The notes under the pieces were generated by a model, which was given only the letters and a program-made list of their open reading frames with translations, did no database searches and was not told the origin of the DNA. Shown piece after piece: positions 2,132-51,450 of a stretch of DNA of 64,000 bases (within the stretch, counting starts at the first letter, position 1; every line of letters begins with the position of its first letter). A program made the translations under genes and the position numbers. This stretch comes from an uncultured Odoribacter sp. (GTDB lineage: Bacteria > Bacteroidota > Bacteroidia > Bacteroidales > Marinifilaceae): contig CALUKF010000007.1 of assembly GCA_944321145.1 (NCBI GenBank), positions 1 to 64,000 of the forward strand, read 5' to 3'.

Positions 2132-2192
2132 GATATCATTGCAAATTTTAAAGTTACACTATAAAGTCAAAGAAAAATTCCAGAAGTGAGCG

Positions 2193-3866: not shown

Positions 3867-3944
3867 ATCATCTATTTAAAATTTAATCTACTGCACATAT
3901 TAAGAAACTACCCCCTAAAGCTTTATCCGGTATGACGGGAGCCG

Positions 3945-3970: not shown

Positions 3971-4014
3971 AGCAAAACAAATGAGTGATTTCATGATGTG
4001 TTTTTGAATTTAAA

Positions 4015-4728
4015 TCAATTTGTGGCATCCCGCACACAACGCACGCGCATCATCGGCACAGACAAGGGATCTGTCGACATGCGGTAAACTTCTGAAGAGT
4101 TGTAATGCAACTTGCGATAGTAAACCCTGCCGTCCTCATCCTGCGTTGAAGTCCAAAAGAAACCTTTTTCCTTCACGAAGCGAACATCCATAGTATATGG
4201 CCTGCCAGAAAATGAAGCATTGCCGGAAAGCTGCAAACCCAATCCGATGCCTTCTTCACCTTGGCGGAGGAGGTCGGCTACGCCTTTGCCCCGCCAACCT
4301 TCATCAGCGGCTTCACCCGGAGACATGCCAAGGGCTATTTCCAATTGCTGCCAATCTTCATCCGTCGGGAGGCGCCAGCCATCGCCCAATGACTCGCACA
4401 CCTCACAGGCAGTCTCCCATTCGTAAAGATTGCCATAACGTGCAAAGTCCTGCTGCTCGGCAGGTGTGCCTTCTTCCGTTCCTGAGAAATACGTTCCTAA
4501 CCAATCCCCGTATTTGTTCAAGTCGTATTCAGCCGCGAAATACGGAATCCCGGCTTTCAGATTGGAAGTCATCCATTCTTGATTGCCAATCCGGACATAA
4601 TGATACACCTCCCCGGTAGAGGCATCCGTCCATTCACCTGTGCTTTCAGGCAAAACTACCGGCAAATCGTCATCACTACATGCAAAACCCAACAGGCTAA
4701 TCGCTAATATAATATACAAGTGTCTCAT
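4015..4728 (-). CDS. FISUMP-domain lipoprotein
   Basis: A 237-residue lipoprotein (signal MRHLYIILAISLLGFACSD). The mature part shows the features of the Fibrobacter succinogenes major paralogous (FISUMP) domain: an early Y-x-x-V-x-I-G-N-Q-E-W-M segment, the central GDGWRLPTDEDWQQLE, a W-T-S-T motif and the terminal RCVRD. The fold is C-lectin-like and found on surface or secreted proteins; no enzymatic activity is established. It lies inside SusCD locus A, 19 nt after the upstream lipoprotein gene, so it is probably a surface accessory of the importer. Locus B has no counterpart. The family call is firm. Confidence 0.85.
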   Translation of the reverse strand: MRHLYIILAISLLGFACSDDDLPVVLPESTGEWTDASTGEVYHYVRIGNQEWMTSNLKAGIPYFAAEYDLNKYGDWLGTYFSGTEEGTPAEQQDFARYGNLYEWETACEVCESLGDGWRLPTDEDWQQLEIALGMSPGEAADEGWRGKGVADLLRQGEEGIGLGLQLSGNASFSGRPYTMDVRFVKEKGFFWTSTQDEDGRVYYRKLHYNSSEVYRMSTDPLSVPMMRVRCVRDATN

Positions 4729-4747
4729 CTTTTTTGCCTTTAAATTG

Positions 4748-5629
4748 TTAGAATTTCATTCCTGCCAAAGCAGTCACTTCTTTTATGATTTCATATTTCT
4801 GCAACACAATGTCATAACGGGAAAACCTTTGATAAACTTCTTCGTCCGTCATGGTCAGGAGGAGATGAATGTAAGATGCTACATCTTCTCCTTGAGTACA
4901 ATAATACTCGTCAGCCCCTGCCGGCACCAAAAAACCAATTTCATAATATTCCTCCATGCTGCTTTCACCATTGTTATATTCATTGTACATGCTGTCCCCC
5001 CATTCATCGATTGCCAAATCATAGAAAGACTGTAAATTTCCTGCGTATTTCAAGGCAATGCCACTGCCAGCCATATTGGCAATCAACATATCCTGCTCCT
5101 CTTCCGTGCCTTCGATTTCCGGCAAGGCAATGATAAAACAACGCAAGGACGTGCAAAAATCTAACGACTGTACAATTATGTCGCCATAACTATCCAAAGT
5201 TGTGATAATACTGTCTACGACCAAAACGGAATAGGGCTTGGTCAAGTTGATTTTCTCCATTCGTTTTGCCAAACCGCTGACAAATTCTGCCCGCTCGCGT
5301 TTTTGATCCATACTTTGGCAATAAACAAAGCGGTAACTCGTATAGCTATCATAACCGGTAAGTTGCCAATTAGGATCAACGGTTTCCGTTCGATAATAAG
5401 GATCGCCCTCGCTGTCGACAGTTAAAAGTTCATGGCTCAAAGTATCGTTGAAAAGGATATAAAATCCATTTTCTTCAAAAAATTCCCTGCGAAGCACGGA
5501 CTCCTCGTCTGTGGCTTCCGGATCAGGAAGGAAATTGTTAATGCTGCCTATCGGGGTCAAGTCATCTTCAGAACATGCCCACAAGGTGCTTGCCGCACAT
5601 AATATCAAGAAGTAATAAATGTGTTTCAT
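4748..5629 (-). CDS. SusCD-associated lipoprotein resembling import-associated metallohydrolase, lacking HExxH
   Basis: A 293-residue lipoprotein (MKHIYYFLILCAASTLWACSE). Its position directly after SusD, its size and the motif FFEENGFYILFNDT match a family of Bacteroidetes lipoproteins annotated as substrate import-associated zinc metallohydrolases. No HExxH is present anywhere in the sequence, so a zinc protease activity is not supported. The paralogous position in locus B (43573-44466) holds a protein of the same kind, also without HExxH. It may be a catalytically dead substrate-binding subunit of the outer-membrane complex. The lipoprotein call is sure; the family link is moderately sure. 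Confidence 0.6.
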   Translation of the reverse strand: MKHIYYFLILCAASTLWACSEDDLTPIGSINNFLPDPEATDEESVLRREFFEENGFYILFNDTLSHELLTVDSEGDPYYRTETVDPNWQLTGYDSYTSYRFVYCQSMDQKRERAEFVSGLAKRMEKINLTKPYSVLVVDSIITTLDSYGDIIVQSLDFCTSLRCFIIALPEIEGTEEEQDMLIANMAGSGIALKYAGNLQSFYDLAIDEWGDSMYNEYNNGESSMEEYYEIGFLVPAGADEYYCTQGEDVASYIHLLLTMTDEEVYQRFSRYDIVLQKYEIIKEVTALAGMKF

Positions 5630-5659: not shown

Positions 5660-7849
5660 TCAATAACCTATGGCACTATAATAGGCATCCCCAAATGCTT
5701 CATCGTATTCATCTTTCTCCTCTTGGGTCGCATAGCCTTCATACCAATAAAAATCATCCGTCTCTGCCCAAGCATAGTCGTGCTCTATTTCCCATTGAGC
5801 CATGGCTGCCCCATCTTCCGCGCCTTTCTCAGCAGGGGTTTTCAAAGCATCGGCGTAGCCTTCTTCAAAAGCGGTATTGTATTCATCAAAATTGTAATCC
5901 CTACAATCCCACATGTCATTGTAGCCATCTCCATATTCGTCTCCTGCAGCAAAATCGACACGCCCGGCAGCAAAACCGTCGGCATAGCCAGCCAGCCAAT
6001 CTTCCGATGCCCCTCCCTCATCCGGATAGGCTTCATTATAACCTTCTTCAAAGGCTGCCTCATAAGCATCCCCATAGATATCAAATTGGTCATAATCAGC
6101 ATTATAATAACGATAGTAATTGGGATTGTAATTATCCGGCAAATGCTCCGCACCAACCTCTTTGTCTTCTGCTCCAACTTCCAATCCAGCCCTATAACCA
6201 TCTGCTTGCCCCAATGCTTCAAAATCCAAACCGGCAAACTCGTTATGCACTGTGCCCGGACGGTCAGGACGAGAAACAGAAGAAAGGTCTGGCTGGAAAT
6301 CAGTCACTTCTTTCGGCAACGCCAAAGTATAAGCCGGATCATTTTCAGCCAAGGTATAAACAGTCGTCACATATTCACTTCCTGTCGTAGGATCCGCCTC
6401 TGCGTTGAAATCCGTATAATAATGAGTGATCTCTTTACTATAAGGATATTGGGCATCTACCATATAACGGCGCAAATCAAACCAACGGTGACCTTCCAAA
6501 CAAAGCTCCCGCTCGCGCTCGTCGCGAATAAATTGAACCAATTCGCCACCGGTGCCATAGTTAGCGTTATCCGTCCTCACCCTCCGGCTGCGCAATTGCT
6601 GCAACAAACTGACAGCCTCTCCGCTATTTCCCAATTGGGCTGCAGCCTCTGCCGCATTCAAATAAGCTTCAGCCGTACGCATCAGGAAAAAGTCGCCCAC
6701 CTCGTTGTATTCCCCGGAAGTATATAAATCCGGTCCATCGGCTTTATTAAGCACCCATTCAGGAGAATATACGATGCCATAGACAATGGGATTGATTTGG
6801 CGGATATAAATTCCCCGGCGCAAATCGTTATCGTCTCCTTCCTCACCATACAGATCAACCAGATTTTGCGAGATGCAAAACGTAGGCACGACAAGCGTAT
6901 CCCCCATCAAAGAAGTCCCTTCGTCCATAAAAGTAATAGGTGCCAACACATGCCCTCCCATAGAAAAAATCGTCTCCACAGAAGAGCGGTTAAGAACGCT
7001 GGTTCCGCTTGAAGCGGTGTAAGCATTCAAATCTTCCAAATCCCCCTTGCGTTGCATGACGCTATCCGCATAGTTGTAAGCATTTTGCCAATCCTGCATA
7101 TAAAGGTACACCCGGCTGGTCAATAAAAGTGAAGCAACAATGTCCGCACGATAGGGATGATTCTTTACGTTTGTTTGCCGCAAGCATTCATTGGCAACTT
7201 CCAAGTCTGCCAAAATATAGCCATACACTTCACTCAACGGAGAGCTTTCCCACAAGCGGTCCTCAATCTGAGGTGTCCGTTTGATTGGGATTCCCGGTTC
7301 CGTGGAAGCAGTATTGGGGTCATAGGGACGCGCGTACATATTCACTAACGTAAAATAGTAAATCGCACGCAAAAAATAAGATTCTCCCTTTATCCGGATT
7401 TTTTCCAATTCGTCCTCTTCATCAGCAGCTGATTGCTCATCAATGGAAGCAATAATTTGGTTTACTACATTGATGCGTTTATACAATTCATTCCAATCCC
7501 TATCTTCCGCATTAATCGTCGTCCCCTTATAAGTGCTTCCTACCTGCCGCTGCCAAGTGATGTAGCCAAAATAATCATCCTGAAGATGATAATTGACTTG
7601 CCAGGTCTTCCTAAAAATCTCCAGCTCATCCGTCATAAGATGCAAACATTCCAAGAAATCACTTTCATACGTAGTAGAAGAATACTCATTGAACATCCTG
7701 CCCGGACGCCAATAACCATCCCCGATAAGCAATTCGTCCAAGTCTGTGTAGCTCTCAACTTTGGACAAATCTTGCGAATATTCTTCCAGAAAATTTGTAC
7801 AAGAGGTTGCCAGCACAATCATTAATCCTATGAATATATATTTTTTCAT
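5660..7849 (-). CDS. SusD/RagB-family outer-membrane lipoprotein with Tyr/Gly-rich C-terminal repeat tail
   Basis: A 729-residue SusD-like lipoprotein (signal MKKYIFIGLMIVLATSCTN). The N-terminal TPR-like helices and the C-terminal SusD signature (LCLEGHRWFDLRRY, about residue 455) are clear. SusD proteins cap the SusC barrel and bind substrate at the cell surface. The usual core ends near residue 520; about 200 extra residues follow with repeated AFEEGYNEAY, LAGYADGFAAG, YGDGYNDMW and AFEEGYADAL units. They are very acidic and resemble the G-x3 repeats of Yae1-like proteins. Locus B SusD (477 aa) has no tail. The gene lies 12 nt after susC. The family call is firm; the tail function is unknown. 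Confidence 0.92.
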   Translation of the reverse strand: MKKYIFIGLMIVLATSCTNFLEEYSQDLSKVESYTDLDELLIGDGYWRPGRMFNEYSSTTYESDFLECLHLMTDELEIFRKTWQVNYHLQDDYFGYITWQRQVGSTYKGTTINAEDRDWNELYKRINVVNQIIASIDEQSAADEEDELEKIRIKGESYFLRAIYYFTLVNMYARPYDPNTASTEPGIPIKRTPQIEDRLWESSPLSEVYGYILADLEVANECLRQTNVKNHPYRADIVASLLLTSRVYLYMQDWQNAYNYADSVMQRKGDLEDLNAYTASSGTSVLNRSSVETIFSMGGHVLAPITFMDEGTSLMGDTLVVPTFCISQNLVDLYGEEGDDNDLRRGIYIRQINPIVYGIVYSPEWVLNKADGPDLYTSGEYNEVGDFFLMRTAEAYLNAAEAAAQLGNSGEAVSLLQQLRSRRVRTDNANYGTGGELVQFIRDERERELCLEGHRWFDLRRYMVDAQYPYSKEITHYYTDFNAEADPTTGSEYVTTVYTLAENDPAYTLALPKEVTDFQPDLSSVSRPDRPGTVHNEFAGLDFEALGQADGYRAGLEVGAEDKEVGAEHLPDNYNPNYYRYYNADYDQFDIYGDAYEAAFEEGYNEAYPDEGGASEDWLAGYADGFAAGRVDFAAGDEYGDGYNDMWDCRDYNFDEYNTAFEEGYADALKTPAEKGAEDGAAMAQWEIEHDYAWAETDDFYWYEGYATQEEKDEYDEAFGDAYYSAIGY

Positions 7850-7861: not shown

Positions 7862-10800
7862 TTAAAATGAAACATTCAAACCTATGGAATAGGTCGGACG
7901 GTCGCTCAATTGCACTTCAGCGAAGCCGCTTTGCGTAGGCGTTTGCCCGTCCAATTTTTTAGAGCAAATGGTAAACAGATTACTGCCTGACAAGGTTAAT
8001 TCCAAACGGGACATACCCGTCTTTTTCAATATATTCTCGCCAAACTGATAAGTCAAACTAATGTTGTTGCATTTCAAGTAATTGGAACTTACCACCCTGT
8101 GATTCCCGTAATCATACATTTCCCAAGCATTATTTGCCAAAGGCTGCATATTATCCACAAGAACAGAATAATGGTCTCCATATTTATAATAAGCATCTCC
8201 GTTGCTCTCGCTAATAATTGCCGGAATATTTGTATGCCTTTCGTCACCGGGCTGCTTCCAACGATTCAATTGCATGCGGTTCATATTCCGCTCCGGATAA
8301 ATGACACTCACATCAATGCTTCCATCGCTTGCTGCATCATAAAGTCCAAAAAGCCGAATCTTGCCGCCTAAACTATAAGCAAAACTTCCTGACAAACGGA
8401 AATTCTTATACCGCACACTCGTATTCAATCCTCCGGACATCACAGGCTCACGCCGCCCGGAAGCCTCCAATACTTTAGTATAAGTGTCATACCGGCTCAA
8501 GCCTATTAATTTGTCCTGTTCATCCTCCATATCATCAAAAAGCGGTCCCCCATCCACCGGACTAAGCCCGATAAACTTGTAAGAATAAAATGTGCCTACA
8601 GCTTTTCCTTCAACAACGGCAGTGCCATCCAAATAATCCTGCAATTCATAAGCATTACCATCCGGATCCGTTTCCACTTTATTGATTGTCTTGCTAAAAG
8701 AACTGGACAGCGTCCATCTTACATTCTCATTGTTAATGGGCGAAATCGTGAAAGCAAAGCTATAACCGCTATTATTTACATTGCCTCGGTTCACCGTATA
8801 GGCATTACCGTCAATGCCATTCATGGAAGCAATGGTTTTGGTCATGAAAGCATCTTTCGTATGCTTCAGATAATAAGAGGCTTCCACAGCCAATTTATTC
8901 TGAAACAAAGAAAATTCAAGCCCCAAATTATAAGAACTCGTCTTTTCCCATTTCAATTCCGGATTGGCATTGCGTTCCAATGTTGCACCCTCCTCGTTAA
9001 AATAGGCATCCGTCGGGTGTTTCTTGATAATCATCACAGGAGTCTGGTCTTCCAACATATTGCCTTGGTAGCCAAAAGAAGTTTTTAAACGGATGTAATC
9101 TATCCAATCCCGCCGCAGCCAATTGATTTCTGAAAGATTCCAAGAGGCGGAAGCCGACCAGATAGGCAAGAAACGGTGGTTGCTCTGGTCACCAAAACGG
9201 TTGCTGCCGTCCACACGGGCATTGCCGTTCAACGTAAACCAACCCCGATAACCGTAAGACAAAGAGATGTAGCCTGAAACCGTATTGTTTAAATCATTTG
9301 TCAAGTTTGGCGTATTGGAAGCCATCCAAGTTTTATAATTAGGATAATCATCCAAGTCAATATTATTAACAAAACTCATGCCCCTGTCTGCATAGTAGCC
9401 CCGGCTAATATTTTGATAAGCCTTATATTTGGTTGAACTCATTTCCCAACCGGCACTACCAAAAATATTATGTTGATTGTCTTTTCCAAACGTTTTATTT
9501 GCATTCAATTGCAAACGTACCGTGTAAGAATTATTGCGTGTCTCATTATAATTCAATTCGCCTCCAAAAGGCATCAAGGTATAGCTGTCTTCCCCAGTTT
9601 CTGCAGGTACGCCATATTCTGTTCCACGGAGCGTTGCTGCATAATACGTTTTCTCGCCCCAATAGGTTTCCAATACTGTGTTTGAGGTGCTATAAGACAC
9701 AATCGCATTGGCATTTAGCCAATCCGTAAAATTGAACTGCAAATTGGCATTGACCGTTAATCCATTACCCTCTTGAGTATAAGAACTATTATCCAGTTCA
9801 TTCAATATATTGTAGTTATATTCTTCAGAATTGCTGCCGTCTACCTTTCTTTTGTAATAATAATATTCACCATCATCTCCATAAGCAGGAATTGCCCTGC
9901 TGGTGGTATAAGCATAATTCATCGGCGCAATTTCTTCCGGATAATATTTGCGTTCAGATACGTTGCCATTCATTTGGAAAGAAGCAGTCAGCCACTTGGT
10001 CATATTGACATCCAAATTTAAAGCTGCCGTATAACGCTCATTTTCGTTACCTTTGATAACATCATTATCTTTCGAGTAACCAACAGAAGCATAATAACGT
10101 GCGTCCTCAGAGCCACCGGATACGCTGATCGTATGCTGATGAGAGAAACTGTCTTTGGTCAAAAGCTTGAACCAGTCCGTATTCATAGTTTCAATTTTTG
10201 CCACCTCCCGGTCAAAGTCTGCCGGAGTAATCGCGCCTTGGTAAAGTTGATTCATCAAGCCCTCATAGCCGACCAAATTCACATAATCTGGATAAACGTA
10301 ATGTTCTTCAAATAGTTCACGTGAAAATTGAATGCGCTCTTTGGAATTCATCAGATTGATTTTGCGATCAGTATAACGCGGACGCTGACGGAAAGTGGTA
10401 GTCATACTATATTCCACCACGGGGCGTCCAACCCGTCCTTTTTTGGTAGTAATCACAATCACGCCATTCGCCGCCTTCGTTCCGTAAATAGCAGTAGCAG
10501 CAGCGTCTTTCAAAATATCCAAACGCTCAATGTCCTGCGGGTTCAAGCCGGCAATGGCATTGCCGATGCGGTTGATGTAATCCGGGTCGTTCAACTCTTC
10601 CGGCGCAATATCCACCGGGTCTTGCACAATGATGCCATCCACCACCCAGAGCGGCTCACGGTTTCCAATCAAGGTGGAAGTCCCCCGGATGCGGATGCGC
10701 GGCACGACGCCCACCTCACCGGAATTGCTCATAAACATCAAGTCCGGCACTTGTCCCTCCAGCATCTTATCAATGGAAGTGACGGAAGGAATCATAATAT

Positions 10801-11476
10801 CCTCTGCCCTCACGGACGTCACCGCGCTGGTATTTTTGCGACGGTCTACGACTTGGTAACCGGTAACTACCACCTCATCGATTTCCGTCGCCTCCTCGTG
10901 AAGGGTCACATTAATTTCCTTTTGCCCGGCATAGGCAATTTCCTCCGGGCACATGCCGATAAAGGAGAATACCAAACGGATGTCCTCCACATCGGGGAGG
11001 GTGATGGCAAACTTCCCTTCATGGTCGGTGCTCACGCCCATGGTCGTGCCTTTGATGATGACTGCCACGCCGGGGAGCGGATGCCCCTTCGTGTCGACAA
11101 CTGTTCCGGTCACCCGCTTTTCGTCAGCCTGCTGGCGTGCTTCGTTGCGGATGATGATAAGATTGTCGCGGAAAGTGTAGGTCAAACCGGTGTTCGCAAG
11201 GCATTTGTCGAGGATGCTGCTGAGGGTGGCATCGTTTTCAGCCAGGGTAATCCGGTCTGTCCCCATGAGGTCTTCGGACTGGTAAATGAACATGTAGCCG
11301 CAGAGTTTTTCGATTTGCTGAAAAACCTCAGAAAGCTGGCTGTCATTGACCGTCAAACTGATGCGGGCATTCTGTGCGAACGCGCTCGCGTGGCAAGTCA
11401 GGAAGCCTGCCACCATGCATACTACTAGTAATTTCATTTTTCGCAAAGTGTGTTGCAGTTTTCTTCGTTTCTTCAT
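7862..11476 (-). CDS. SusC/RagA-family TonB-dependent receptor with STN domain (locus A)
   Basis: A 1204-residue outer-membrane receptor. After the signal sequence comes an STN domain (about residues 40-112), the signalling domain that contacts FecR. A CarboxypepD_reg-like domain follows (VTGTVVDTKGHPLPGVAVII, about 120-205), then the TonB plug (AATAIYGTKAANGVIVITTKKG) and a long beta-barrel ending in aromatic GLNVSF. With SusD it should import an oligosaccharide or peptide using TonB energy. The STN domain together with upstream FecR and an ECF sigma indicates trans-envelope regulation. The ATG at 11474-11476 overlaps a plus-strand -7 element that probably drives an antisense RNA. The substrate cannot be told. 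Confidence 0.95.
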   Translation of the reverse strand: MKKRRKLQHTLRKMKLLVVCMVAGFLTCHASAFAQNARISLTVNDSQLSEVFQQIEKLCGYMFIYQSEDLMGTDRITLAENDATLSSILDKCLANTGLTYTFRDNLIIIRNEARQQADEKRVTGTVVDTKGHPLPGVAVIIKGTTMGVSTDHEGKFAITLPDVEDIRLVFSFIGMCPEEIAYAGQKEINVTLHEEATEIDEVVVTGYQVVDRRKNTSAVTSVRAEDIMIPSVTSIDKMLEGQVPDLMFMSNSGEVGVVPRIRIRGTSTLIGNREPLWVVDGIIVQDPVDIAPEELNDPDYINRIGNAIAGLNPQDIERLDILKDAAATAIYGTKAANGVIVITTKKGRVGRPVVEYSMTTTFRQRPRYTDRKINLMNSKERIQFSRELFEEHYVYPDYVNLVGYEGLMNQLYQGAITPADFDREVAKIETMNTDWFKLLTKDSFSHQHTISVSGGSEDARYYASVGYSKDNDVIKGNENERYTAALNLDVNMTKWLTASFQMNGNVSERKYYPEEIAPMNYAYTTSRAIPAYGDDGEYYYYKRKVDGSNSEEYNYNILNELDNSSYTQEGNGLTVNANLQFNFTDWLNANAIVSYSTSNTVLETYWGEKTYYAATLRGTEYGVPAETGEDSYTLMPFGGELNYNETRNNSYTVRLQLNANKTFGKDNQHNIFGSAGWEMSSTKYKAYQNISRGYYADRGMSFVNNIDLDDYPNYKTWMASNTPNLTNDLNNTVSGYISLSYGYRGWFTLNGNARVDGSNRFGDQSNHRFLPIWSASASWNLSEINWLRRDWIDYIRLKTSFGYQGNMLEDQTPVMIIKKHPTDAYFNEEGATLERNANPELKWEKTSSYNLGLEFSLFQNKLAVEASYYLKHTKDAFMTKTIASMNGIDGNAYTVNRGNVNNSGYSFAFTISPINNENVRWTLSSSFSKTINKVETDPDGNAYELQDYLDGTAVVEGKAVGTFYSYKFIGLSPVDGGPLFDDMEDEQDKLIGLSRYDTYTKVLEASGRREPVMSGGLNTSVRYKNFRLSGSFAYSLGGKIRLFGLYDAASDGSIDVSVIYPERNMNRMQLNRWKQPGDERHTNIPAIISESNGDAYYKYGDHYSVLVDNMQPLANNAWEMYDYGNHRVVSSNYLKCNNISLTYQFGENILKKTGMSRLELTLSGSNLFTICSKKLDGQTPTQSGFAEVQLSDRPTYSIGLNVSF

Positions 11477-11483
11477 ACATTTG
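11453..11483 (+). promoter_or_regulatory. plus-strand promoter overlapping the susC start (antisense)
   Basis: TTG at 11453-11455, a 20-nt spacer and TACATTTG at 11476-11483 match the Bacteroidetes -33/-7 consensus well. It reads on the plus strand, opposite to fecR and susC, and its -7 box overlaps the susC start codon. No plus-strand protein gene follows, only a terminator hairpin at 11525-11560, so a short antisense RNA is the natural product. Confidence 0.65.
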
Positions 11484-11489
11484 TGGAAT

Positions 11490-11560
11490 TAAAGTTAATG
11501 ATTGAATTAATTTTATCGCAATTCGGAGAAAGGTTTGAGGGAACCTTTCTCCATTTTTTT
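11490..11560 (+). ncRNA. predicted DonS-like cis-antisense sRNA upstream of susC (locus A)
   Basis: This is a roughly 70-nt transcript from the consensus promoter at 11453-11483 to a perfect hairpin with a T-run at 11525-11560. It is antisense to the fecR-susC intergenic leader. In Bacteroides fragilis, DonS and related antisense RNAs encoded at this position repress SusCD operons. The same arrangement occurs in locus B at about 49584-49663. The exact 5' end is estimated from the -7 box. Confidence 0.6.
11525..11560 (+). terminator. intrinsic terminator, plus strand
   Basis: GGAGAAAGGTT (11525-11535) and AACCTTTCTCC (11542-11552) form a perfect 11-bp stem with a 6-nt loop, followed by ATTTTTTT. 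The T-run is only on the plus strand, opposite to the SusCD operon, so it ends an antisense transcript rather than fecR. Confidence 0.75.
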
Positions 11561-11619: not shown

Positions 11620-12780
11620 TTATCTGCTTACATAAATTGTCCCGTTGTATTCGCTAAAGCGGATGCCGTAGGTTTCCTCGACACGCTCTAAGATGTCCAT
11701 CACGTTTTCATAGCGTTCGCAATGGATGTGGAAGCGCAGGTCGCGCAAGCGCGGGTCGGTGTAAACCACCTGGAAATCATACCATCGCCCGAGTTTGCGC
11801 AGGATGTCCTCCAAGCGGTCATTGCGGGCGACAAACTTGCCGCTCTTCCATGCCAAGACGGCTTCAAGGTCGGCTTCCCGGATTTGGGTTTCACCGTTTT
11901 CCACGACATAGACAGACTGATAAGACGGACGCAGGATGATTTCCTCCTGCCTGCCGTCAAAACGCTGGGCAACACTGCCGGTCAAAAGGGTGGTCACCAC
12001 CTCTCCGTCATCGGGATAGGCGGAAATATCGAAACTGGTACCCAATACTTGCAATTCCATGTGGTCAGTACGGACGAAGAAAGGCGAAGCCGTGTCACGC
12101 GCCACCTCGAAATAGGCTTCGCCTTTCAAGGACACCTCGCGTTTGCCGGGGGCAAAACGTTCGGGATAGCGCAATTCGCTGCCCGCATTCAGCCACACGC
12201 GGCTGCCGTCGGCAAGGGCAAGCGAAAATTCACAGCCGCCGGGAACCGTGAGGGTATTGTAATGCACTTCCGACTGCAGCAAGATATCCTGCACGGGGAT
12301 GTATTCCAAGCGGGAGGAATCTTGCAGGCGGATATCCACGGCATGATTGCCGGAAACAATGGCTTGCGGCTTGTCGGAAAGGACAAGGCTCTGCCCGTTG
12401 TGAAGGGTCAGGATAGGGCGGTTCTCGCCCGGAAGAGGGATGGAAGCAAGCGTTTCACCTGCCGGCTCTGTGCCCCATTGACGCAAAAATAAAGTACCTG
12501 CCGTCACCGCCACTATAATAATGGCAGCGCATTGGAGCATGCGCCGCAACAATTTGCGGGAACGTAAACGCCGCACAACGCGGACGTATGCCTTTTCTTC
12601 GTTGATATGCTCCCAGCGTCCGCTCCAGCGTGCCCGGAGGGCTGCACCGCCAAGGGCACGAAAGTCTTTCTTCCGTTCCGGATGTGCAGAAAGCCATTCG
12701 CTGAAACGCTTCCGTTCTTCCGGCGTCTGATTTCCAGCGAGGTAATCCGCTATGATTTGTTGTTCATCTTGTTTTTCCAT
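11620..12780 (-). CDS. FecR-family anti-sigma factor (locus A)
   Basis: From the ATG at 12780 the product is 386 residues; the open frame continues upstream, but MEKQDEQQIIADYLAGNQT is the typical FecR start. The N-terminal DUF4880-like cytoplasmic part (about 1-80) binds the ECF sigma factor, a single membrane helix follows (AAIIIVAVTAGTLFL, about 86-103), then the periplasmic FecR domain (SLALADGSRVWLNAGSELRYP, FEVARDTASPFFV) and a C-terminal STN-like DUF4974 domain ending in YGIRFSEYNGTIYVSR. It transmits the SusC signal to the sigma factor. Its cognate sigma gene (13925-14530) is separated from it by an inserted HigBA module. Confidence 0.92.
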   Translation of the reverse strand: MEKQDEQQIIADYLAGNQTPEERKRFSEWLSAHPERKKDFRALGGAALRARWSGRWEHINEEKAYVRVVRRLRSRKLLRRMLQCAAIIIVAVTAGTLFLRQWGTEPAGETLASIPLPGENRPILTLHNGQSLVLSDKPQAIVSGNHAVDIRLQDSSRLEYIPVQDILLQSEVHYNTLTVPGGCEFSLALADGSRVWLNAGSELRYPERFAPGKREVSLKGEAYFEVARDTASPFFVRTDHMELQVLGTSFDISAYPDDGEVVTTLLTGSVAQRFDGRQEEIILRPSYQSVYVVENGETQIREADLEAVLAWKSGKFVARNDRLEDILRKLGRWYDFQVVYTDPRLRDLRFHIHCERYENVMDILERVEETYGIRFSEYNGTIYVSR

Positions 12781-13003
12781 GTTCTTTTTGTGTTTTCTTT
12801 TCCAATTTCGCCGGCATACAATGGCGGCGATTGTCTTCCGACGTCTATAAGACAAACACAAAAAACAGAAAACGGGTGAGTCATTTTCATCACTTTTTTT
12901 GTTAAAAATGGAATTTTTCTTGCGAACCTCTGGGAAACAGCTCGTTACAAATGGGAATATTTCGGGAATTCCAAACCTGAAAACCCCTACCCCGCCAATA
13001 TCC
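12781..13003. other. fecR upstream region
   Basis: This stretch continues the fecR frame without a credible start. On the minus strand I find no exact TAnnTTTG match. In an uninterrupted locus fecR would follow its sigma gene directly; here the hairpin element and HigBA module separate them, so fecR may need a local promoter I cannot identify. Confidence 0.4.
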
Positions 13004-13133
13004 ACTCCTTAGTTGGTCTCTACTTCTCCCACACATCCTCCAGACATAGCCTGCCCTTTCCGTGGTTGGGAGCACGGAAACCTCAGGGCATCTGCGGAGA
13101 AACAGCGAAGCAAGTAGAGAGCAACCAAGGAGT
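13004..13133. repeat. 130-bp palindromic element abutting the antitoxin stop
   Basis: The outer arms 13004-13024 and 13113-13133 are inverted repeats of 21 bp with two mismatches. Inside, TGCCCT pairs with AGGGCA and TTTCCGTG with CACGGAAA around an 8-nt loop, so the whole region can fold into one long hairpin. The right arm ends on the last base of the antitoxin stop codon. There is no T-run on the minus strand. It resembles a MITE-like palindrome or a strong 3'-end structure of the inserted module. Confidence 0.7.
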
Positions 13134-13462
13134 CACCACAAGGCGACTTTTCCCAATTTTCCAAGATCAAGCATCGCGGAGGTCACGCCCAAGGCTTTAA
13201 ACACACGACTCATCGAAGCAAGAGTTATGCTTTTCCCTTTTTCCAATTTAGAAATTTGTGCCCTTTGCACACCAATCCGCTCCCCTAATTGTTCTTGTGT
13301 AAGATGCTGTGCTAAACGAGCTTTACGAATTGCTTCGCCAACATAATAGGATTCCACTTCTGCCTGAAGTTTTGCTTCCATTTCATCCCTTTTCGGAGTT
13401 CCTTTTTTACCCCAAATATCATCCAACAATTCTTCGTGCGTATGAAATTTCATTGCTCCCAT
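13133..13462 (-). CDS. XRE-family HTH antitoxin (HigA-like)
   Basis: A 109-residue protein with a helix-turn-helix of the XRE/Cro type in the C-terminal half (QHLTQEQLGERIGVQRAQISKLEKGK, about residues 53-78; the N-terminal 45 residues probably bind the toxin). It follows the RelE/HigB-type toxin gene by 9 nt, the toxin-first order of higBA modules, and should bind its own promoter and neutralise the toxin. The pair lies between an ECF sigma gene and its FecR partner, an unusual place that points to insertion. Family firm, pairing firm from position. Confidence 0.87.
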   Translation of the reverse strand: MGAMKFHTHEELLDDIWGKKGTPKRDEMEAKLQAEVESYYVGEAIRKARLAQHLTQEQLGERIGVQRAQISKLEKGKSITLASMSRVFKALGVTSAMLDLGKLGKVALW

Positions 13463-13471
13463 ATTATTCTA

Positions 13472-13816
13472 TTATTTTGATTTCTCTGCAAAATATTCTT
13501 TCCTTATTGCTTCTGCTTTTCTAATTTCTTTTAATGGCGTTTTATCCGTTTTCTTGACAAATCCATGTGTTGCCACAACTAAAGTTTCTTCCTCAGTATC
13601 CCAAAATGCCAGAAGCCTGTAACTTATTCCATTATATAAAGTACGAAACTCCCATATATTAGTTCCATCTAATTTTTTAAACAATTCACTATCTATAAAA
13701 TAGATGCTTTTCGAGATATTGTAACCTATTTTATCCCGCGCTTTTTCCGGCAAAGCCTGTATAAAATTCCATGCTTCTTCCGTGTAGATAACTTTAAACC
13801 GTTCATCCATAAACAT
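13472..13816 (-). CDS. RelE/HigB-type toxin (Gp49-like)
   Basis: From the ATG at 13816 the product is 114 residues (MFMDERFKVIYTEEAWNFIQ). The frame is open to 13873, but the -7 promoter box TACCTTTG at 13829-13836 lies inside that extension, so the shorter start is preferred; Met3 (13810) is also possible. The sequence shows the phage-derived Gp49/HigB pattern: WNFIQALPEKARDKIGYNI, then LWEFRTLYNGISYRLLAFWD-like strands (here IWEFRTLYNGISYRLLAF) and a terminal TPLKEIRKAEAIRKEYF helix. This family cleaves mRNA on the ribosome. It is paired with the downstream XRE antitoxin. Confidence 0.87.
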   Translation of the reverse strand: MFMDERFKVIYTEEAWNFIQALPEKARDKIGYNISKSIYFIDSELFKKLDGTNIWEFRTLYNGISYRLLAFWDTEEETLVVATHGFVKKTDKTPLKEIRKAEAIRKEYFAEKSK

Positions 13817-13828
13817 CGTTTTATAGTG

Positions 13829-13836
13829 CAAAGGTA
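13829..13836 (-). promoter_or_regulatory. -7 promoter element of the HigBA module
   Basis: On the minus strand this reads TACCTTTG, an exact TAnnTTTG match, 12 nt before the chosen toxin start codon. A T-rich stretch lies upstream, but no well-spaced -33 TTG is evident. It supports the toxin start at 13816. Confidence 0.6.
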
Positions 13837-13924
13837 CATATTTGTATCCAAAAAACGATACAATCGTGCACAAAATTCACACTTCCACTTTTCTTTTTAT
13901 CACTGAGGGCATTCAAAGCAAAAG

Positions 13925-14530
13925 CTACCTGCAATAATCCCCGGAAATATCGCACAATTCCGGCATCTCCCCGCTTTCTGTCCGAAGCATAAAAAGGAAG
14001 AAAAGATTATCAGGGAATTGCTTGCGGAGAGTTTTCAAGCCACTGCTAAGCAGGCTTTTGACGGTATTGATGGAAATATGGAGTTCATCGGCTGCTTCCT
14101 GGTATTTCCGGTCGCGAAGGATGACAAGGGAGATGACTTTGCGGGTTTGCTCCGGAAGCTGGCGGATGGCTTTGTGGATATCGGCTATCAACTCAGGAGA
14201 GACAGTCCGGGCTTCCTCTTCCGCTACATCATAAAGCAACATGTCTGCCTGGCAAATTTCTTTGCGGTCGCGCTGACGGTTGAGGCAGGCGTGCTTGACA
14301 CAACGGAAAAGCCACGTGGAGAGGGCTTCCGGCGTCACACGCAAGAATACCTTGTCATGAATGAAATCATAGAATACATCCTGCACGATATCTTCCGCCA
14401 AATCACTCTCGCTAAGCATGGTTTCGGCAAACAATACCAACGGCTTATAATAGCGATTGAACAACAACCGACCGCCTTTTTCCATGTCTTTTTGAAAAGA
14501 TGCCAATATTTCTTCATCCGTGCAATACAT
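13925..14530 (-). CDS. ECF RNA polymerase sigma factor (locus A)
   Basis: A 201-residue sigma-70 family ECF factor. Region 2 (FNRYYKPLVLFAETML...DIVQDVFYDFI, about residues 24-60) and region 4 (LPEQTRKVISLVILRDRKYQEAADEL, then HISINTVKSLLSSGLKTLRK, about 120-170) are clear. It should direct RNA polymerase to the SusCD operon when FecR is triggered by the receptor STN domain. Its own promoter is suggested by TAACTTTG at 14553-14560. The expected neighbour FecR is displaced by a 1.1-kb stretch with the HigBA module and a palindrome. The C-terminal 30 residues after region 4 are an uncharacterised tail. Confidence 0.92.
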   Translation of the reverse strand: MYCTDEEILASFQKDMEKGGRLLFNRYYKPLVLFAETMLSESDLAEDIVQDVFYDFIHDKVFLRVTPEALSTWLFRCVKHACLNRQRDRKEICQADMLLYDVAEEEARTVSPELIADIHKAIRQLPEQTRKVISLVILRDRKYQEAADELHISINTVKSLLSSGLKTLRKQFPDNLFFLFMLRTESGEMPELCDISGDYCR

Positions 14531-45943: not shown

Positions 45944-48900
45944 TTAAAACATTATTTGCAGGGACAAAGAGGTCGTCCGGCGCGTTGGCCAATCTCCTGT
46001 CTCCGGGTCTAATCCGTCCCACTTCTTGTCCGATACCCACATAAACGGGTTGCTCATGCTTGCCGACAGGGAGAGGTACCCCAACCCCGCTTTGTCCAAC
46101 CACTCTCCCGTAAAGTCATACGACAAAGAAAGGGAACGGCAACGGATAAAGTCCGTATTCGCCACCCGGATGTCAGACAGGTTGTACATGGCATAGCAAT
46201 TCTCCCGCTGCTCCGTGGAAGTCTTGGTTTCCGGCAAATAAATCTCTTCATCTTGCGTATAGCTGGGCAGCGTGGGGTAAATCGTCTGGTCTCCCGGTTG
46301 CCGCCAGCGGTTCATCAATTTGCGGGATACGTTCTGCTCCGGACGGGGCAACCCCGAACCGTTACCGCTTCCGCTTTCTGCAGGATACAAGTTCGGTAAC
46401 CGGTTGTGCCCGCCCCATTGCACGGCGAACAAAGCCGACAGGGAGAGTTGCTTGTACTTGAACATCATGTTCAACCCGCCGGAGAAATCAGGCGTGAACT
46501 TCCCGGTCTCCACCAAAAAGTCTTTGGGGCTGTCAGCATTTTCATATTCGATATCCATGTGTTTGAACGTTGGCATCCCCGTTTCATCGTCCAAGCCCGC
46601 AAATTCGTATGAATAGAACGTAGAATAAGGACGTCCGTCCACCACGGCAGAGCCGTTCAGATAATCATCCAGCGTATTGATACGTTCGTTCTTGTCCACC
46701 GTATTGTTGGTCACCGACGTATTCAGTGAAAGTTGCCACGTGAAATCCTTTGTCCGCACAGGCACCAAATTAATCACAAAATCATAACCGTTATTTTTCA
46801 TCGTGGAGCCGGAAACCACGCCGTTCTCCATGCCGTTCTCGAAAGGAATGTTCCGTGAAGAAAGCACATAGCTGGTCTTGCGGAAGTAGTTGAACGTGAA
46901 GTTCAGCCGCCCTTTCAGGAACGAAGCGTCCAACCCGAAGTTCCACGTCTTCGTCTTCTCCCAGCCCAAATTCGGATAAGGCAGGAACTTTATCGCCAAT
47001 CCGTAATCGCCATACTGTTTGAGATACGACTCCGTCGCAATCAGATTCGGCGACACGGAAGTCACCGCATTCCCCTGGTACCCGTAGGAGCCGTAAATGT
47101 CCAAATTGTTCAGCCACCATGTAGCCGCCCAGAAAGGCTCGCTCGCCACCCTCCACTTGAAGCCTGCCGACCACGTCGGTTGGAAGCGTTTGTTCTTGTC
47201 TTGCCCGAAGCGGTTGGACGCATCCACGCGGGCACTGAAGTTCAGCACGTAACGGTCATCATACGTGTACACGGCAGAACCGTATTCGCTCAACTGGTTC
47301 TCTACCCGGTTGACGACCGTGTGCGACCCGTTCACGATGTCGCTATTATCCATCGTCATGCCATAGGTGCTTTCATGTTCGGCAGGAGGCAGGACGAAAG
47401 ATTCCCCTCGGGTGGGCATGTACCCGTACCGCGTGTTGGTCTCCCCCTTCGTTTTGGTGGAATTGGTCTCAATACCCAGCTGCAATACCAACCGGTGTAC
47501 ATCCTTGATTGAACAGTCGTACACCAGGCTGTTTCTCACGGAGATGCCTTGGGTATTGGTCAATGTCGTTTCCAGCAACCCGCCCATGGGAAGCGGCGAA
47601 CATCCTGCTTCCTCGCTGTTTGCCGAATATTCCCCGTACTCATACCCGCGGATGCTGCTGATGTAGAACGAAGGCTCGTCTGCCCATTGCTTGGTGTCGG
47701 CAGAAGAAGAGGAGAAAGAGAACATCCCTTGGTAAGTCAATCCCTTCAAAAACTCCCACTGCACGTCCAGCGTCGTGCCCCACGTGCGGGTGCGGTTTTC
47801 GCTCGCCGTATTGTCCATTTCATTCAAAATGTTGTAATTGTAAATGGTGCCACCCGTAACGTAGCTCGCACTGCCTTTCTTTTCGTGGTAATACAACGAG
47901 CCGTCCTCATTGTAAGCCGGAATCGCCCGTGACGTATTGTAAGCATAATTGAACGGGTCAACGCCGTAAGCAAACCCCTTCACCTCGCGCAGGCTTGCAT
48001 TCAGCAGGAAAGACACCTGCACCTTGTCCCAAAGCTGCAAACTCGTGTTGGAGGAAGCCGTGAAGTTCGTCGAACTGTTGCCCCTTGCCTCTCCGTTTTC
48101 CTGTGAATATCCCAACGAAATGCGGTTCTGTATCTTCTCCGAGCCGCCGCTGATGCCCAAATGGTGGGAATGGTTGAACGTGTTGCGGAACAGGATGTCA
48201 AACCAGTCCGTATTTGTCCGTGCCATACGTTCATACTCTTTGTTCATCTCTTCCAACGTGATTTCCCCGTTAAACAATTTCTGTTCCAACCCGTAGTAAC
48301 CCATCGGGAGGATAAATGAACTTGACTGATATTGCTTCCGTTCCTCATGTATCTCCCGTTGGAACTGCATGTGCTCCGCCGAGTTCATCAGGTCGTACAG
48401 CCCGTACCGGGGACGTTGCCCGATGGTGAAATCGCCGCTGTAGCTGAGTTGGATTCTCCCGACCTGCGCCTTCTTCGTCGTGATGACAATCACCCCGTTT
48501 GCTGCCTGCGAACCGTAAATTGCCGTTGCCGAAGCGTCTTTCAGCACCGTGATAGACTCAATGTCGCGGGGATTCAGCCATGAAATCGCGTTCCCTGCCA
48601 GCTCCGTGATATCGTCCGCATCCGTGGAAAACTTGAAATTGTCATCCGAATTGAACGGCTGCGGGTCGCGCTGGATTACGCCGTCCACCACCCACAGCGG
48701 CTCCTGACTGCCCAGCAGCGTCGAGGTGCCCCGCACCCGGATTTTGGGCGTCGCGCCCACCATCCCCGTCTGGTTCTGCACCAACATGCCTGGCACCACG
48801 CCCTGCAACATCTGGTCAATCGACGACACGCCTGCCATCATGATGTCCTCCGCCTTCACCGTCGTCGCCGCGCCCGTGTAATTTCCTTTCGACACATTGC

Positions 48901-49570
48901 CGTATCCCGTCACCACCACCTCGTTCATCTCTTGGATATCTTCTTTCAGCACCACATTGATAGTCTCCTTCCCTGCATATTTCACCACCTGCGTCTCGAA
49001 CCCCACAAACGAGAATGCCAGCGAAAAAGCCTCGTCCCCCAGCACCGGGACTGTCAAGGCATAATGCCCGTCCACATCCGTCGCCGTCCCGATAGTCACC
49101 CCGACCTCGTCTTCTTGCACTAATACGGTCACTCCCGGCAATGGCTGGTGCTTGGGGTCACGCACAATGCCCCGCACTTGGACAGCCTTAATTTCCTCTC
49201 CCTTCGCCTCCTTCTTCTTGATAATAATGTAATTGTCATCATACTGCCACTCAAACGGCTGCCCGGCGAAGAGCTTCTTCAGTGCCTCCTCCACCGTCCC
49301 GTTCGCGACGTGCAGCGTCACGGGCGACAACCCCTTCAGCTGCTCCGTGTTGTACATGAAATTGAGCCCCGTCTGCTCCTTGATTTGCTGGAAGACAAGC
49401 GAAATGTCCGCCTGCTCCACGTTGATACTCACTTTCTGTTCCTGGGCGGCAAGCGTGAGAGGCGTGAAAATCACCGCTATCCACGCAATTGCCAGCGTCC
49501 GGCAGAAAAATCTTGTCTTTTTTCGCCATTTTTTAGGCGAAGAAATGCCCATTGTGTTGGTTTTCTCCAT
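45944..49570 (-). CDS. SusC/RagA-family TonB-dependent receptor with STN domain (locus B)
   Basis: A 1208-residue receptor with the same order as locus A: signal region, STN domain (ISLVFQQIKEQTGLNFMYNT..., about residues 50-115), CarboxypepD_reg-like domain (VRGIVRDPKHQPLPGVTVLV, about 130-215), plug (ATAIYGSQAANGVIVITTKKA) and barrel ending in LSLQIMF. It is a TonB-powered importer that signals through FecR. The start codon (49568-49570) overlaps a plus-strand -7 box of a probable antisense RNA. The substrate is unknown. Confidence 0.95.
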   Translation of the reverse strand: MEKTNTMGISSPKKWRKKTRFFCRTLAIAWIAVIFTPLTLAAQEQKVSINVEQADISLVFQQIKEQTGLNFMYNTEQLKGLSPVTLHVANGTVEEALKKLFAGQPFEWQYDDNYIIIKKKEAKGEEIKAVQVRGIVRDPKHQPLPGVTVLVQEDEVGVTIGTATDVDGHYALTVPVLGDEAFSLAFSFVGFETQVVKYAGKETINVVLKEDIQEMNEVVVTGYGNVSKGNYTGAATTVKAEDIMMAGVSSIDQMLQGVVPGMLVQNQTGMVGATPKIRVRGTSTLLGSQEPLWVVDGVIQRDPQPFNSDDNFKFSTDADDITELAGNAISWLNPRDIESITVLKDASATAIYGSQAANGVIVITTKKAQVGRIQLSYSGDFTIGQRPRYGLYDLMNSAEHMQFQREIHEERKQYQSSSFILPMGYYGLEQKLFNGEITLEEMNKEYERMARTNTDWFDILFRNTFNHSHHLGISGGSEKIQNRISLGYSQENGEARGNSSTNFTASSNTSLQLWDKVQVSFLLNASLREVKGFAYGVDPFNYAYNTSRAIPAYNEDGSLYYHEKKGSASYVTGGTIYNYNILNEMDNTASENRTRTWGTTLDVQWEFLKGLTYQGMFSFSSSSADTKQWADEPSFYISSIRGYEYGEYSANSEEAGCSPLPMGGLLETTLTNTQGISVRNSLVYDCSIKDVHRLVLQLGIETNSTKTKGETNTRYGYMPTRGESFVLPPAEHESTYGMTMDNSDIVNGSHTVVNRVENQLSEYGSAVYTYDDRYVLNFSARVDASNRFGQDKNKRFQPTWSAGFKWRVASEPFWAATWWLNNLDIYGSYGYQGNAVTSVSPNLIATESYLKQYGDYGLAIKFLPYPNLGWEKTKTWNFGLDASFLKGRLNFTFNYFRKTSYVLSSRNIPFENGMENGVVSGSTMKNNGYDFVINLVPVRTKDFTWQLSLNTSVTNNTVDKNERINTLDDYLNGSAVVDGRPYSTFYSYEFAGLDDETGMPTFKHMDIEYENADSPKDFLVETGKFTPDFSGGLNMMFKYKQLSLSALFAVQWGGHNRLPNLYPAESGSGNGSGLPRPEQNVSRKLMNRWRQPGDQTIYPTLPSYTQDEEIYLPETKTSTEQRENCYAMYNLSDIRVANTDFIRCRSLSLSYDFTGEWLDKAGLGYLSLSASMSNPFMWVSDKKWDGLDPETGDWPTRRTTSLSLQIMF

Positions 49571-49577
49571 AATTTTG
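49570..49577 (+). promoter_or_regulatory. plus-strand -7 element overlapping the susC start (locus B)
   Basis: TAATTTTG matches TAnnTTTG on the plus strand, antisense to susC, in the same position relative to the start codon as in locus A. The nearest TTG (49552-49554) is 15 nt upstream, shorter than ideal. Confidence 0.5.
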
Positions 49578-49583: not shown

Positions 49584-49663
49584 TAAAATTGTGATTTGAT
49601 ATGGATGCCTCAAACATCCGTTTGCGAGCCGCGAGTTGTTGGAGCAACTTGCGGTTTACTTTT
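49584..49663 (+). ncRNA. predicted DonS-like cis-antisense sRNA upstream of susC (locus B)
   Basis: A transcript of about 80 nt is predicted from the -7 box at 49570-49577 to a hairpin, CCGCGAGTTG/CAACTTGCGG (49629-49654, one mismatch), followed by TTTACTTTT. It lies in the fecR-susC gap on the opposite strand, as in locus A, and a small GGATG/CATCC hairpin (about 49604-49620) precedes the terminator. The 5' end is estimated. Confidence 0.5.
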
Positions 49664-49675: not shown

Positions 49676-50812
49676 TCAGGGCGCATACACGGTCACGCTC
49701 TCCCCCTTCACGCCGAAAAGCACGGTGCCCGTCGACTCCATCCGCTCCAACCCCTCCTCAAACGAGTCGTTCCGGTCGAGAATCCCCGAAAACCACACCT
49801 CCTTCGCCCCTTCCGTGGCATAGAACACATGCAGCCCGTACCACGACGCCAGCCGCTCCATGATGTCCTCCACGCGTGCATTGTCAAACACAAACTCCCC
49901 GTCCTTCCACGCAATGTACGCATACGGCGACACGTCGCTCACCGCAATGCCGCTCCCCTCCCCGCCGTATTCCGCCAGCTGCCTCGGCTTCAGCACCGCC
50001 TCCTCGCCCGTCTCCCGCACGCGCACACCCACCTTCCCTTCGACGAGCACCGTCTGGATGTTCGTCTCAGAATAAGCGTTCACGTTAAATTCCGTACCGT
50101 ACACCTTTACCTCCACCCCGTATGCCTCCACGAGGAACGGGTGCGTCCCGTCATGCGCCACGTCGAAATATGCCTCTCCCCACAGCTCCACCTTCCGCTC
50201 CTTCCCTTGGAACCGCTCCGGATAACGGATGACCGTCTGTTCGTTCACCCACACCCGCGTCCCGTCCGCCAGTGTCAGCTGGTAAGCCCCGCCTGCAGGC
50301 GTCCGCAGCGTGTTCAGCCGCTCCTCCGCCGTGCTGCCTGCTCCGGCAACCGCTACAGCCGTATAATCCAGCCCCCTCGCCGTGTCGTAAGGAATCCCCT
50401 CCCCGGCAGTTCCCCCGCCCTGCGGGTCTATGAACAACTGCTCGCCGCTCGCCAGCGTCAGCTCCACCAGCTTCCGGGGAGCCTCCACCTCCGCCGCCGG
50501 GACGCCTCCCGTCCGGAACAAATCCCCGCCAACGATGGCAAGGACGGCAACGGCAGCCGCCGCTGCGCACCAACCTGCAATCCTGCGGCGGAGCTTCCGC
50601 CCGTTCCCCCGCCGTTGCAAACGCGGCATCTCCGCCGGTTGCGCCTCATGCCCCTTCTGTGCCGACAGCACTTTCCGGATGAGAGCCAACTCGTCTACCA
50701 GCTCCTCGTGCCCCGGCTCCGCCAGCCACGCCCGGGCTTCCTCCTCGGGCACTTCCTCCCGGTGGTTCAGCAGCCGTATGGCAAATTCAATATCTTCGTT
50801 CGTGTAATTCAT
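49676..50812 (-). CDS. FecR-family anti-sigma factor (locus B)
   Basis: From the ATG at 50812 (MNYTNEDIEFAIRLLNHREE) the product is 378 residues. The N-terminal cytoplasmic region, a membrane helix (IAGWCAAAAAVAVLAIVGG, about 83-102), the FecR domain (YQLTLADGTRVWVNEQTVIRYP, AYFDVAHDGTHPFLV) and the C-terminal DUF4974 domain (ARVEDIMERLASWYGLHVFY) are all present. It holds the adjacent ECF sigma factor inactive until the SusC STN domain signals. It lies 74 nt after the sigma gene, the ordinary arrangement that locus A has lost. Confidence 0.93.
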   Translation of the reverse strand: MNYTNEDIEFAIRLLNHREEVPEEEARAWLAEPGHEELVDELALIRKVLSAQKGHEAQPAEMPRLQRRGNGRKLRRRIAGWCAAAAAVAVLAIVGGDLFRTGGVPAAEVEAPRKLVELTLASGEQLFIDPQGGGTAGEGIPYDTARGLDYTAVAVAGAGSTAEERLNTLRTPAGGAYQLTLADGTRVWVNEQTVIRYPERFQGKERKVELWGEAYFDVAHDGTHPFLVEAYGVEVKVYGTEFNVNAYSETNIQTVLVEGKVGVRVRETGEEAVLKPRQLAEYGGEGSGIAVSDVSPYAYIAWKDGEFVFDNARVEDIMERLASWYGLHVFYATEGAKEVWFSGILDRNDSFEEGLERMESTGTVLFGVKGESVTVYAP

Positions 50813-50886
50813 AATGCAATATTTCATCTTTTGTCCATAACACAACCTACCCCCCGGAATGGGTGACAGCAAAATCAAAAAAAATT

Positions 50887-51450
50887 TCAGGATTTCCACG
50901 CAAAAACGAGCAGCGACATCATATCCCTCTGTGCGTCATCGTCTTCCGCATTTGTCAATTCCGCCCTCAAAAATGACAATCCCCGCGCCAGGTGCGTCTT
51001 CAGCGAATTGACGGTGATGCCCATCTCGTCGGCAGCCGCCTGGTATCTCTTCCCCTCCACGACGCACTTCACGATGGCTTCCCGCTGCTTCTCCGACAGC
51101 TCCCCCATCTTCACCCTCAGCCGCTCCTCCCGGCTCTCGATGGTGCGCCAATCCTCCGCCACATGCTCCATCCAGGCGGCGATTTCCTGCTCGTTGTCCT
51201 CCTGCACGCGCTTGTGCTTCAGGTGGTTCAACGCCCGGTTGCGCGCCAGCGTGAGCAGGTACGCCTTCACGGGGTACGAGGCATCGATGCGCTCCCGGTT
51301 GTCCCACAGGATGACAAACACGTCCTGCGCAATGTCCTTCGCCGCCTCCCCGTCGTTCACATACCCCGCCACGAACTGCACGACATTCCCGAAGTACGTC
51401 GTGTACAGGCGGCTGAATGCGCCCTCGTCCAAAGCAGGCTTCTTGTCCAT
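50887..51450 (-). CDS. ECF RNA polymerase sigma factor (locus B)
   Basis: From the ATG at 51450 (MDKKPALDEGAFSRLYTTYF) the product is 187 residues. Region 2 (DGEAAKDIAQDVFVILWDNRE, about 33-55) and region 4 (LSEKQREAIVKCVVEGKRYQ, AADEMGITVNSLKTHLARGL, about 115-165) fit an ECF factor of the Bacteroidetes SusCD-linked class. The longer open frame upstream crosses a -7 promoter element at 51477-51484 and is not used. It should activate the susCD operon of locus B. Confidence 0.93.
   Translation of the reverse strand: MDKKPALDEGAFSRLYTTYFGNVVQFVAGYVNDGEAAKDIAQDVFVILWDNRERIDASYPVKAYLLTLARNRALNHLKHKRVQEDNEQEIAAWMEHVAEDWRTIESREERLRVKMGELSEKQREAIVKCVVEGKRYQAAADEMGITVNSLKTHLARGLSFLRAELTNAEDDDAQRDMMSLLVFAWKS

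What the first reader, a model, noticed from the sequence alone, without database searches (positions are those of the whole stretch)
11453..11560. Consensus antisense promoter and terminator between fecR and susC (locus A)
The plus strand carries TTG-N20-TACATTTG, whose -7 box overlaps the susC start codon, followed after about 70 nt by a perfect 11-bp hairpin and seven T. No protein gene lies on that strand. Established knowledge: DonS-type antisense RNAs in Bacteroides fragilis occupy this position and repress SusCD operons. Inference: this is such an RNA in another Bacteroidales, acting on the susC leader.
Basis: partly seen in the sequence, partly recalled or inferred. Interest (0 to 1): 0.85.

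Follow-up and report, generated by a model that had tools for sequence, protein, structure and literature searches.

The report
Antisense RNA gene at susC start
A tiny RNA gene lies backwards across the start of a nutrient-importer gene (susC), using that gene's own start codon as part of its promoter; the same arrangement recurs at most susC genes of its type in this genome and in distant relatives, so it is very probably a real, selected off-switch rather than noise, of a kind (DonS-type antisense RNA) already described in Bacteroides.

Summary
In detail: + strand TACATTTG (11476-11483) overlaps the susC ATG. An 11-bp hairpin (11525-11552) plus seven T ends a predicted ~73-nt antisense RNA. 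Of 49 TAnnTTTG boxes in the window it is the only one followed by a strong terminator. The TTG "-33" is not supported: no such element is conserved among 87 equivalents. In this genome 39 of 51 susC genes carry the box at the same base, against 3 of 156 other genes. Of these, 32 of 39 have an antisense terminator, against 1 of 39 on the sense strand, and 37 of 39 lie behind fecR. In the closest ortholog the leader is 92% identical, the susC coding sequence 77%, and the sequence beyond the terminator 55%. The geometry recurs in Butyricimonas synergistica, Sanguibacteroides, Bacteroides congonensis and Pedobacter, but not in the Muribaculaceae, Alistipes or Porphyromonadaceae samples. Most likely it is a cis-acting, cognate-specific antisense RNA covering the susC ribosome-loading region. 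That it is transcribed and represses is inferred. New member of a known kind; the fixed start-codon geometry and phylum-wide reach are the new part.

The parts
11476..11483 (+). antisense -7 box TACATTTG (sigma-ABfr type TAnnTTTG), overlapping the susC start codon
   Evidence: the same base register in 35/51 susC genes exactly, 39/51 allowing a one-base shift or an alternative in-frame ATG
11453..11455 (+). TTG proposed as -33 element; not supported
   Evidence: present, but CAA/CAAA at this spacing is not enriched in 87 equivalent promoters
11488..11560 (+). predicted antisense RNA, about 73 nt (start uncertain by a few bases): A/U-rich 5' part, weak 5' stem-loop, terminator hairpin
   Evidence: fold z = -6.1; leader 73/79 identical in ortholog L128; class median 78.5 nt
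11525..11552 (+). terminator hairpin, 11 bp perfect stem
   Evidence: hairpin kept in the ortholog despite changes in the stem
11554..11560 (+). T7 tract of the intrinsic terminator
7862..11476 (-). susC (RagA/SusC-type TonB-dependent transporter with STN signalling domain), the cognate target
5660..7849 (-). susD
11620..13005 (-). fecR anti-sigma regulator
13925..14530 (-). ECF-type sigma factor
49570..49577 (+). second copy of the module in this window: antisense -7 box TAATTTTG on the start codon of susC 45944..49570, behind fecR 49676..50899
49629..49654 (+). antisense hairpin of the second copy (-16.2 kcal/mol) followed by an interrupted T tract TTTACTTTTA

Best explanation
The locus is a cis-encoded antisense RNA gene of the DonS-like, SusC-associated kind. 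A primary-sigma (TAnnTTTG) promoter whose -7 box is built into the susC start codon makes an RNA of about 73 nt that begins about 12 nt upstream of the susC ATG and stops at an intrinsic terminator in the fecR-susC spacer. It is fully complementary to the A/U-rich leader where ribosomes load. While FecR holds the ECF sigma factor and little susC mRNA is made, the antisense RNA would pair with leaky susC mRNA, block translation and/or expose it to decay, and antisense polymerase at the start codon may add interference. On induction, ECF-driven transcription through the element would titrate the RNA and run over its promoter, giving a thresholded switch. Shown by sequence: anatomy, recurrence, strand specificity, link to fecR, conservation. 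Inferred: transcription, repression, switch behaviour.
For: The box sits at the identical base in 39/51 own susC genes against 3/156 control genes, p = 6.5e-28. The two n positions of TAnnTTTG vary while C-7, A-6 to A-4 and T-1 are strongly conserved over all 51 genes, the signature of a promoter box on the other strand. Antisense terminators: 32/39 box-bearing, 1/12 box-less, 1/39 on the sense strand, 8% of shuffles; 37/39 with relaxed T tracts, against 8/39 sense. FecR upstream in 37/39; four of the six FecR-linked genes without a full box have spacers of 55 nt or less. Ortholog leader 92% identical, falling to 55% beyond the terminator, susC CDS 77%. Antisense 5' ends bind their own leader at -33 kcal/mol, other leaders at -7.8, shuffles at -7.3, so cognate-specific. 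Recurs with fecR and terminators in Butyricimonas synergistica, Sanguibacteroides, Bacteroides and Pedobacter. Precedent: DonS represses in B. fragilis, and B. thetaiotaomicron has 32 PUL-associated asRNAs, some verified by northern blot (PMC7366714, PMC10994844).
Against: No expression data for this organism. No conserved -33 element. Conservation of the leader could also reflect sense-strand translation signals. In B. thetaiotaomicron some asRNA-PUL pairs correlate positively rather than negatively (PMC10994844). The sense promoter of susC was not found, so the overlap of asRNA and mRNA is assumed.
Confidence: 0.8

Rival explanations
1. Transcriptional interference only: the antisense promoter matters because RNA polymerase bound at, or firing from, the susC start codon blocks sense transcription or its elongation; the short RNA is a by-product cut off by the terminator to protect fecR.
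For: The box is fixed on the start codon while RNA length and hairpin sequence vary widely (40-126 nt). Terminators often end at the fecR stop codon.
Against: The 5' part of the RNA is 96% identical in the ortholog (48/50) and the hairpin is kept. The RNA covers the ribosome-loading region. Does not exclude a mixed mechanism.
Confidence: 0.2
2. The CAAAnnTATG motif is a sense-strand signal: a translation-initiation element, or a target site for a trans-acting sRNA of the FopS type.
For: FopS sRNAs bind near susC start codons in B. thetaiotaomicron (PMC11697453). A-rich starts are common in Bacteroidota. A weak FopS model alignment spans the locus (16.1 bits).
Against: Other genes lack the motif (3/156). 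The two inner positions vary, unlike a pairing site. The motif goes with antisense but not sense terminators. FopS (RF04319) has no match over its cut-off in this genome.
Confidence: 0.07
3. The hairpin is the terminator of the upstream sigma-fecR operon or a leader structure of susC mRNA, and the promoter-like box is coincidence.
For: It lies directly downstream of fecR.
Against: On the sense strand the hairpin is preceded by A7 and not followed by U; sense terminators occur in 1/39 box-bearing leaders against 32/39 antisense. Box and terminator co-occur.
Confidence: 0.03
4. Spurious antisense transcription without function (pervasive transcription in an A+T-rich region).
For: Most antisense start sites in B. 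thetaiotaomicron give weak, possibly spurious transcripts (PMC7366714).
Against: Fixed register, terminator coupling, link to fecR and conservation across genera and orders are not expected of noise.
Confidence: 0.05

Closest known systems
DonS and the PUL-associated cis-antisense RNAs of Bacteroides fragilis and B. thetaiotaomicron (Cao et al. 2016, cited in PMC7366714, PMC10994844 and PMC9723704)
   Same: Short antisense RNA divergent from susC; in this class a TAnnTTTG box and an intrinsic terminator; class size (median 78.5 nt predicted) close to the reported 78-128 nt.
   Different: Here predicted at about 73 nt; other families (Odoribacteraceae-like, Pedobacter); nearly every fecR-linked susC of this genome has one; -7 box fixed on the susC start codon (whether DonS itself shares this was not tested, the 2016 paper not being held); no carbohydrate enzyme among the downstream genes examined.
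FopS sRNAs (Rfam RF04319)
   Same: Short, TAnnTTTG-driven, terminator-ended RNAs that act at susC start regions.
   Different: FopS are trans-acting multicopy RNAs sharing a seed; these are cis-encoded with cognate-specific 5' ends; the locus scores 16.1 bits against a cut-off of 56.

Membership tests
DonS-type PUL-associated antisense RNA | cis-encoded on the strand opposite susC, overlapping its 5' region | tested here: met
   37/39 genome-wide
DonS-type PUL-associated antisense RNA | length 78-128 nt (PMC7366714) | tested here: inconclusive
   about 73 nt predicted, start site uncertain by a few bases; class 40-126 nt, median 78.5
DonS-type PUL-associated antisense RNA | sigma-ABfr promoter: -7 TAnnTTTG | tested here: met
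   TACATTTG 11476-11483
DonS-type PUL-associated antisense RNA | sigma-ABfr promoter: -33 TTTG | tested here: not met
   GTTG here; no enrichment at this spacing in 87 promoters. [quoted passage not shown]
DonS-type PUL-associated antisense RNA | Rho-independent terminator | tested here: met
DonS-type PUL-associated antisense RNA | expressed as a discrete RNA and represses the cognate susC | not testable with these tools
   no expression or genetic data for this organism
DonS-type PUL-associated antisense RNA | target operon is a glycan-utilisation locus | tested here: inconclusive
   susC/susD present, but the further downstream genes scanned are Fib_succ_major and thioredoxin-like plus one with no Pfam hit; no carbohydrate enzyme among them
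DonS-type PUL-associated antisense RNA | sequence or covariance homology to DonS | not tested
   DonS sequence and 2016 paper not available; no Rfam family above cut-off here
FopS sRNA (RF04319) | match to the Rfam covariance model | tested here: not met
   16.1 bits against gathering 56; none over cut-off in the genome

The most novel reading that the evidence does not exclude
An old, phylum-wide regulatory module: in fecR/ECF-controlled susC genes across Bacteroidota, from gut Bacteroidales to soil Pedobacter, the start codon itself doubles as the -7 box of a dedicated cognate antisense RNA, so that dozens of nutrient transporters in one cell each carry a private RNA brake in fixed register.
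Probability: 0.6. Interest if true: 0.72.

Novelty: new member of a known kind. Interest (0 to 1): 0.58.

Why it matters
It has been open whether PUL-associated antisense RNAs of Bacteroides are functional or noise; in B. thetaiotaomicron their expression correlates both ways with their targets (PMC10994844). A fixed promoter register on the start codon, coupled terminators, the link to fecR and recurrence in distant orders show selection on the whole set. They also give a sequence rule (CAAAnnTATG plus an antisense terminator) that lets anyone list these RNAs in a genome and test them by mutating one box.

Tried and rejected
Rfam scans of the locus and of 20 Bacteroides congonensis leaders gave no known sRNA family. 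-33 TTTG element: not conserved. Conserved sense promoter for susC in the leaders: only fecR-coding and A/T-rich words came up. Cross-talk among paralogous antisense RNAs through their A/U-rich 5' ends: non-cognate pairing about equals shuffles. FopS-type trans sRNA: none over cut-off. Peptide-coding small RNA: the 27-codon ORF is interrupted in the ortholog (reading). DonS primary paper: not held. Literature on antisense RNAs in Butyricimonas: nothing relevant.

Full report
**The observation.** The genes around it are ECF sigma factor (13925-14530), fecR (11620-13005), susC with STN, plug and CarboxypepD-like domains (7862-11476) and susD (5660-7849), all on the minus strand. Of 49 TAnnTTTG boxes on both strands of the window, only this one is followed within 130 nt by a hairpin of -9 kcal/mol or better with a T tract. 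The predicted RNA 11488-11560 folds at -24.5 kcal/mol, z = -6.1.

**Recurrence in the same genome.** The genome (3.15 Mb) has 56 SusC homologs. I fetched the starts and could read 51 start codons. CAAAnnTATG, that is TAnnTTTG on the other strand with its TA on T-1/A+1, occurs exactly in 35. It occurs in 39 if a one-base shift or an alternative in-frame ATG is allowed. Over all 51 genes the two n positions vary while C-7, A-6 to A-4 and T-1 are strongly conserved, as expected of a promoter box and not of a continuous translation or pairing site.

**Coupled terminators.** Antisense intrinsic terminators 25-130 nt from the ATG occur in 32 of 39 box-bearing leaders and in 1 of 12 without the box; that one, L076, has five of the six box bases. 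They occur in 1 of 39 on the sense strand and in 32 of 390 shuffles. With interrupted T tracts allowed the count is 37 of 39, against 8 of 39 sense and 2 of 12 box-less. The terminator often ends at the fecR stop codon, so the RNA gene fills the spacer.

**Link to fecR.** 37 of 39 box-bearing susC genes have FecR immediately upstream, against 6 of 12 without the box (p = 0.001). Four of those six have spacers of 30-55 nt, too short for the element; the others are L053 (98 nt) and L076 (71 nt, near-perfect box).

**Conservation of this locus.** The closest ortholog held (genome G001, locus L128) is 73/79 identical over the leader -80 to -1 and 48/50 over -50 to -1. It is only 31/56 beyond the terminator and 77% in the susC coding sequence. 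Its hairpin is kept although the stem sequence has changed. Conservation stops at the terminator because G001 carries an extra ORF (about 160 codons, no Pfam match) between fecR and the element; antisense gene and susC have stayed together.

**Reach.** Among STN-sized susC genes sampled: Butyricimonas synergistica 16/20, Sanguibacteroides 15/20 and Bacteroides congonensis 7/20 carry the box, with antisense terminators in nearly all. Pedobacter frigidisoli, of another order, has 5/15, all five with fecR and an antisense terminator. Muribaculaceae 0/8 (five with fecR), Alistipes 0/5 and Porphyromonadaceae FC4 0/9 lack it. Relatives of this very SusC in Muribaculaceae, Prevotella, Sphingobacterium, Mucilaginibacter and Chitinophaga lack it too, so it follows lineage and regulatory setting, not the transporter sequence. 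Predicted RNA lengths over 72 loci are 40-126 nt, median 78.5.

**What is not supported.** The -33 TTTG element is not conserved: CAAA or CAA is no commoner at 19-21 nt than elsewhere in 87 promoters. PMC7366714 reports that the -33 motif could likewise not be identified in Flavobacterium johnsoniae. A CGA triplet at +12 of the coding sequence (22 of 87) is unexplained.

**Mechanism.** The RNA would start about 12 nt upstream of the ATG and be complementary to the A/U-rich leader. Pairing energies make each RNA specific to its own susC (cognate -33, non-cognate -7.8, shuffled -7.3 kcal/mol). With FecR/ECF control upstream, the simplest role is a brake on leaky susC expression, overrun on induction. 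Base-pairing and interference in cis cannot be told apart by sequence. In B. fragilis DonS negatively affects its target, and B. thetaiotaomicron has 32 such RNAs, some anti-correlated and some positively correlated with their targets (PMC7366714, PMC10994844).

**Rivals.** FopS-type pairing sites were considered because FopS binds susC starts (PMC11697453); the genome has no FopS match over cut-off and the motif is not built like a pairing site. A sense terminator of fecR is excluded as a general reading by strand asymmetry.

**Verdict.** The added value is the fixed start-codon register, the near-saturation of fecR-linked susC genes in one genome, and the reach to Pedobacter.

Noticed in passing
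window 13133-13873 (-): A HigB/HigA-like pair (Gp49 family 13472-13873; HTH_3 protein 13133-13462) sits between the ECF sigma factor and fecR, splitting the usual sigma-fecR pair.
   Followed up: partly
window 49570-49654 (+): A second instance of the module in the window: box TAATTTTG on the susC start codon at 49570 and an antisense hairpin at 49629-49654 with an interrupted T tract.
   Followed up: yes
own-genome and related susC genes, coding positions +12 to +14: CGA is strongly favoured at codon 5 of box-bearing susC genes (22 of 87, no other offset above 7); on the antisense strand this is TCG about 11 nt upstream of the -7 box. Unexplained; possibly an extra promoter element.
   Followed up: partly
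L128 (genome G001), between fecR and susC: An ORF of about 160 codons with a signal-peptide-like start and no Pfam match is inserted between fecR and the antisense RNA/susC block in the closest ortholog.
   Followed up: partly
window 968-5629 (-): Genes downstream of this susCD encode a Fib_succ_major protein and thioredoxin/TlpA-like proteins, suggesting a substrate other than a polysaccharide.
   Followed up: no
window 59371-59559 (+): Cobalamin riboswitch (Rfam RF00174, 79.9 bits).
   Followed up: no
own-genome locus L078 (G000:C47): An N-terminal susC fragment with the antisense box, apparently a broken susC; the box is still present.
   Followed up: no
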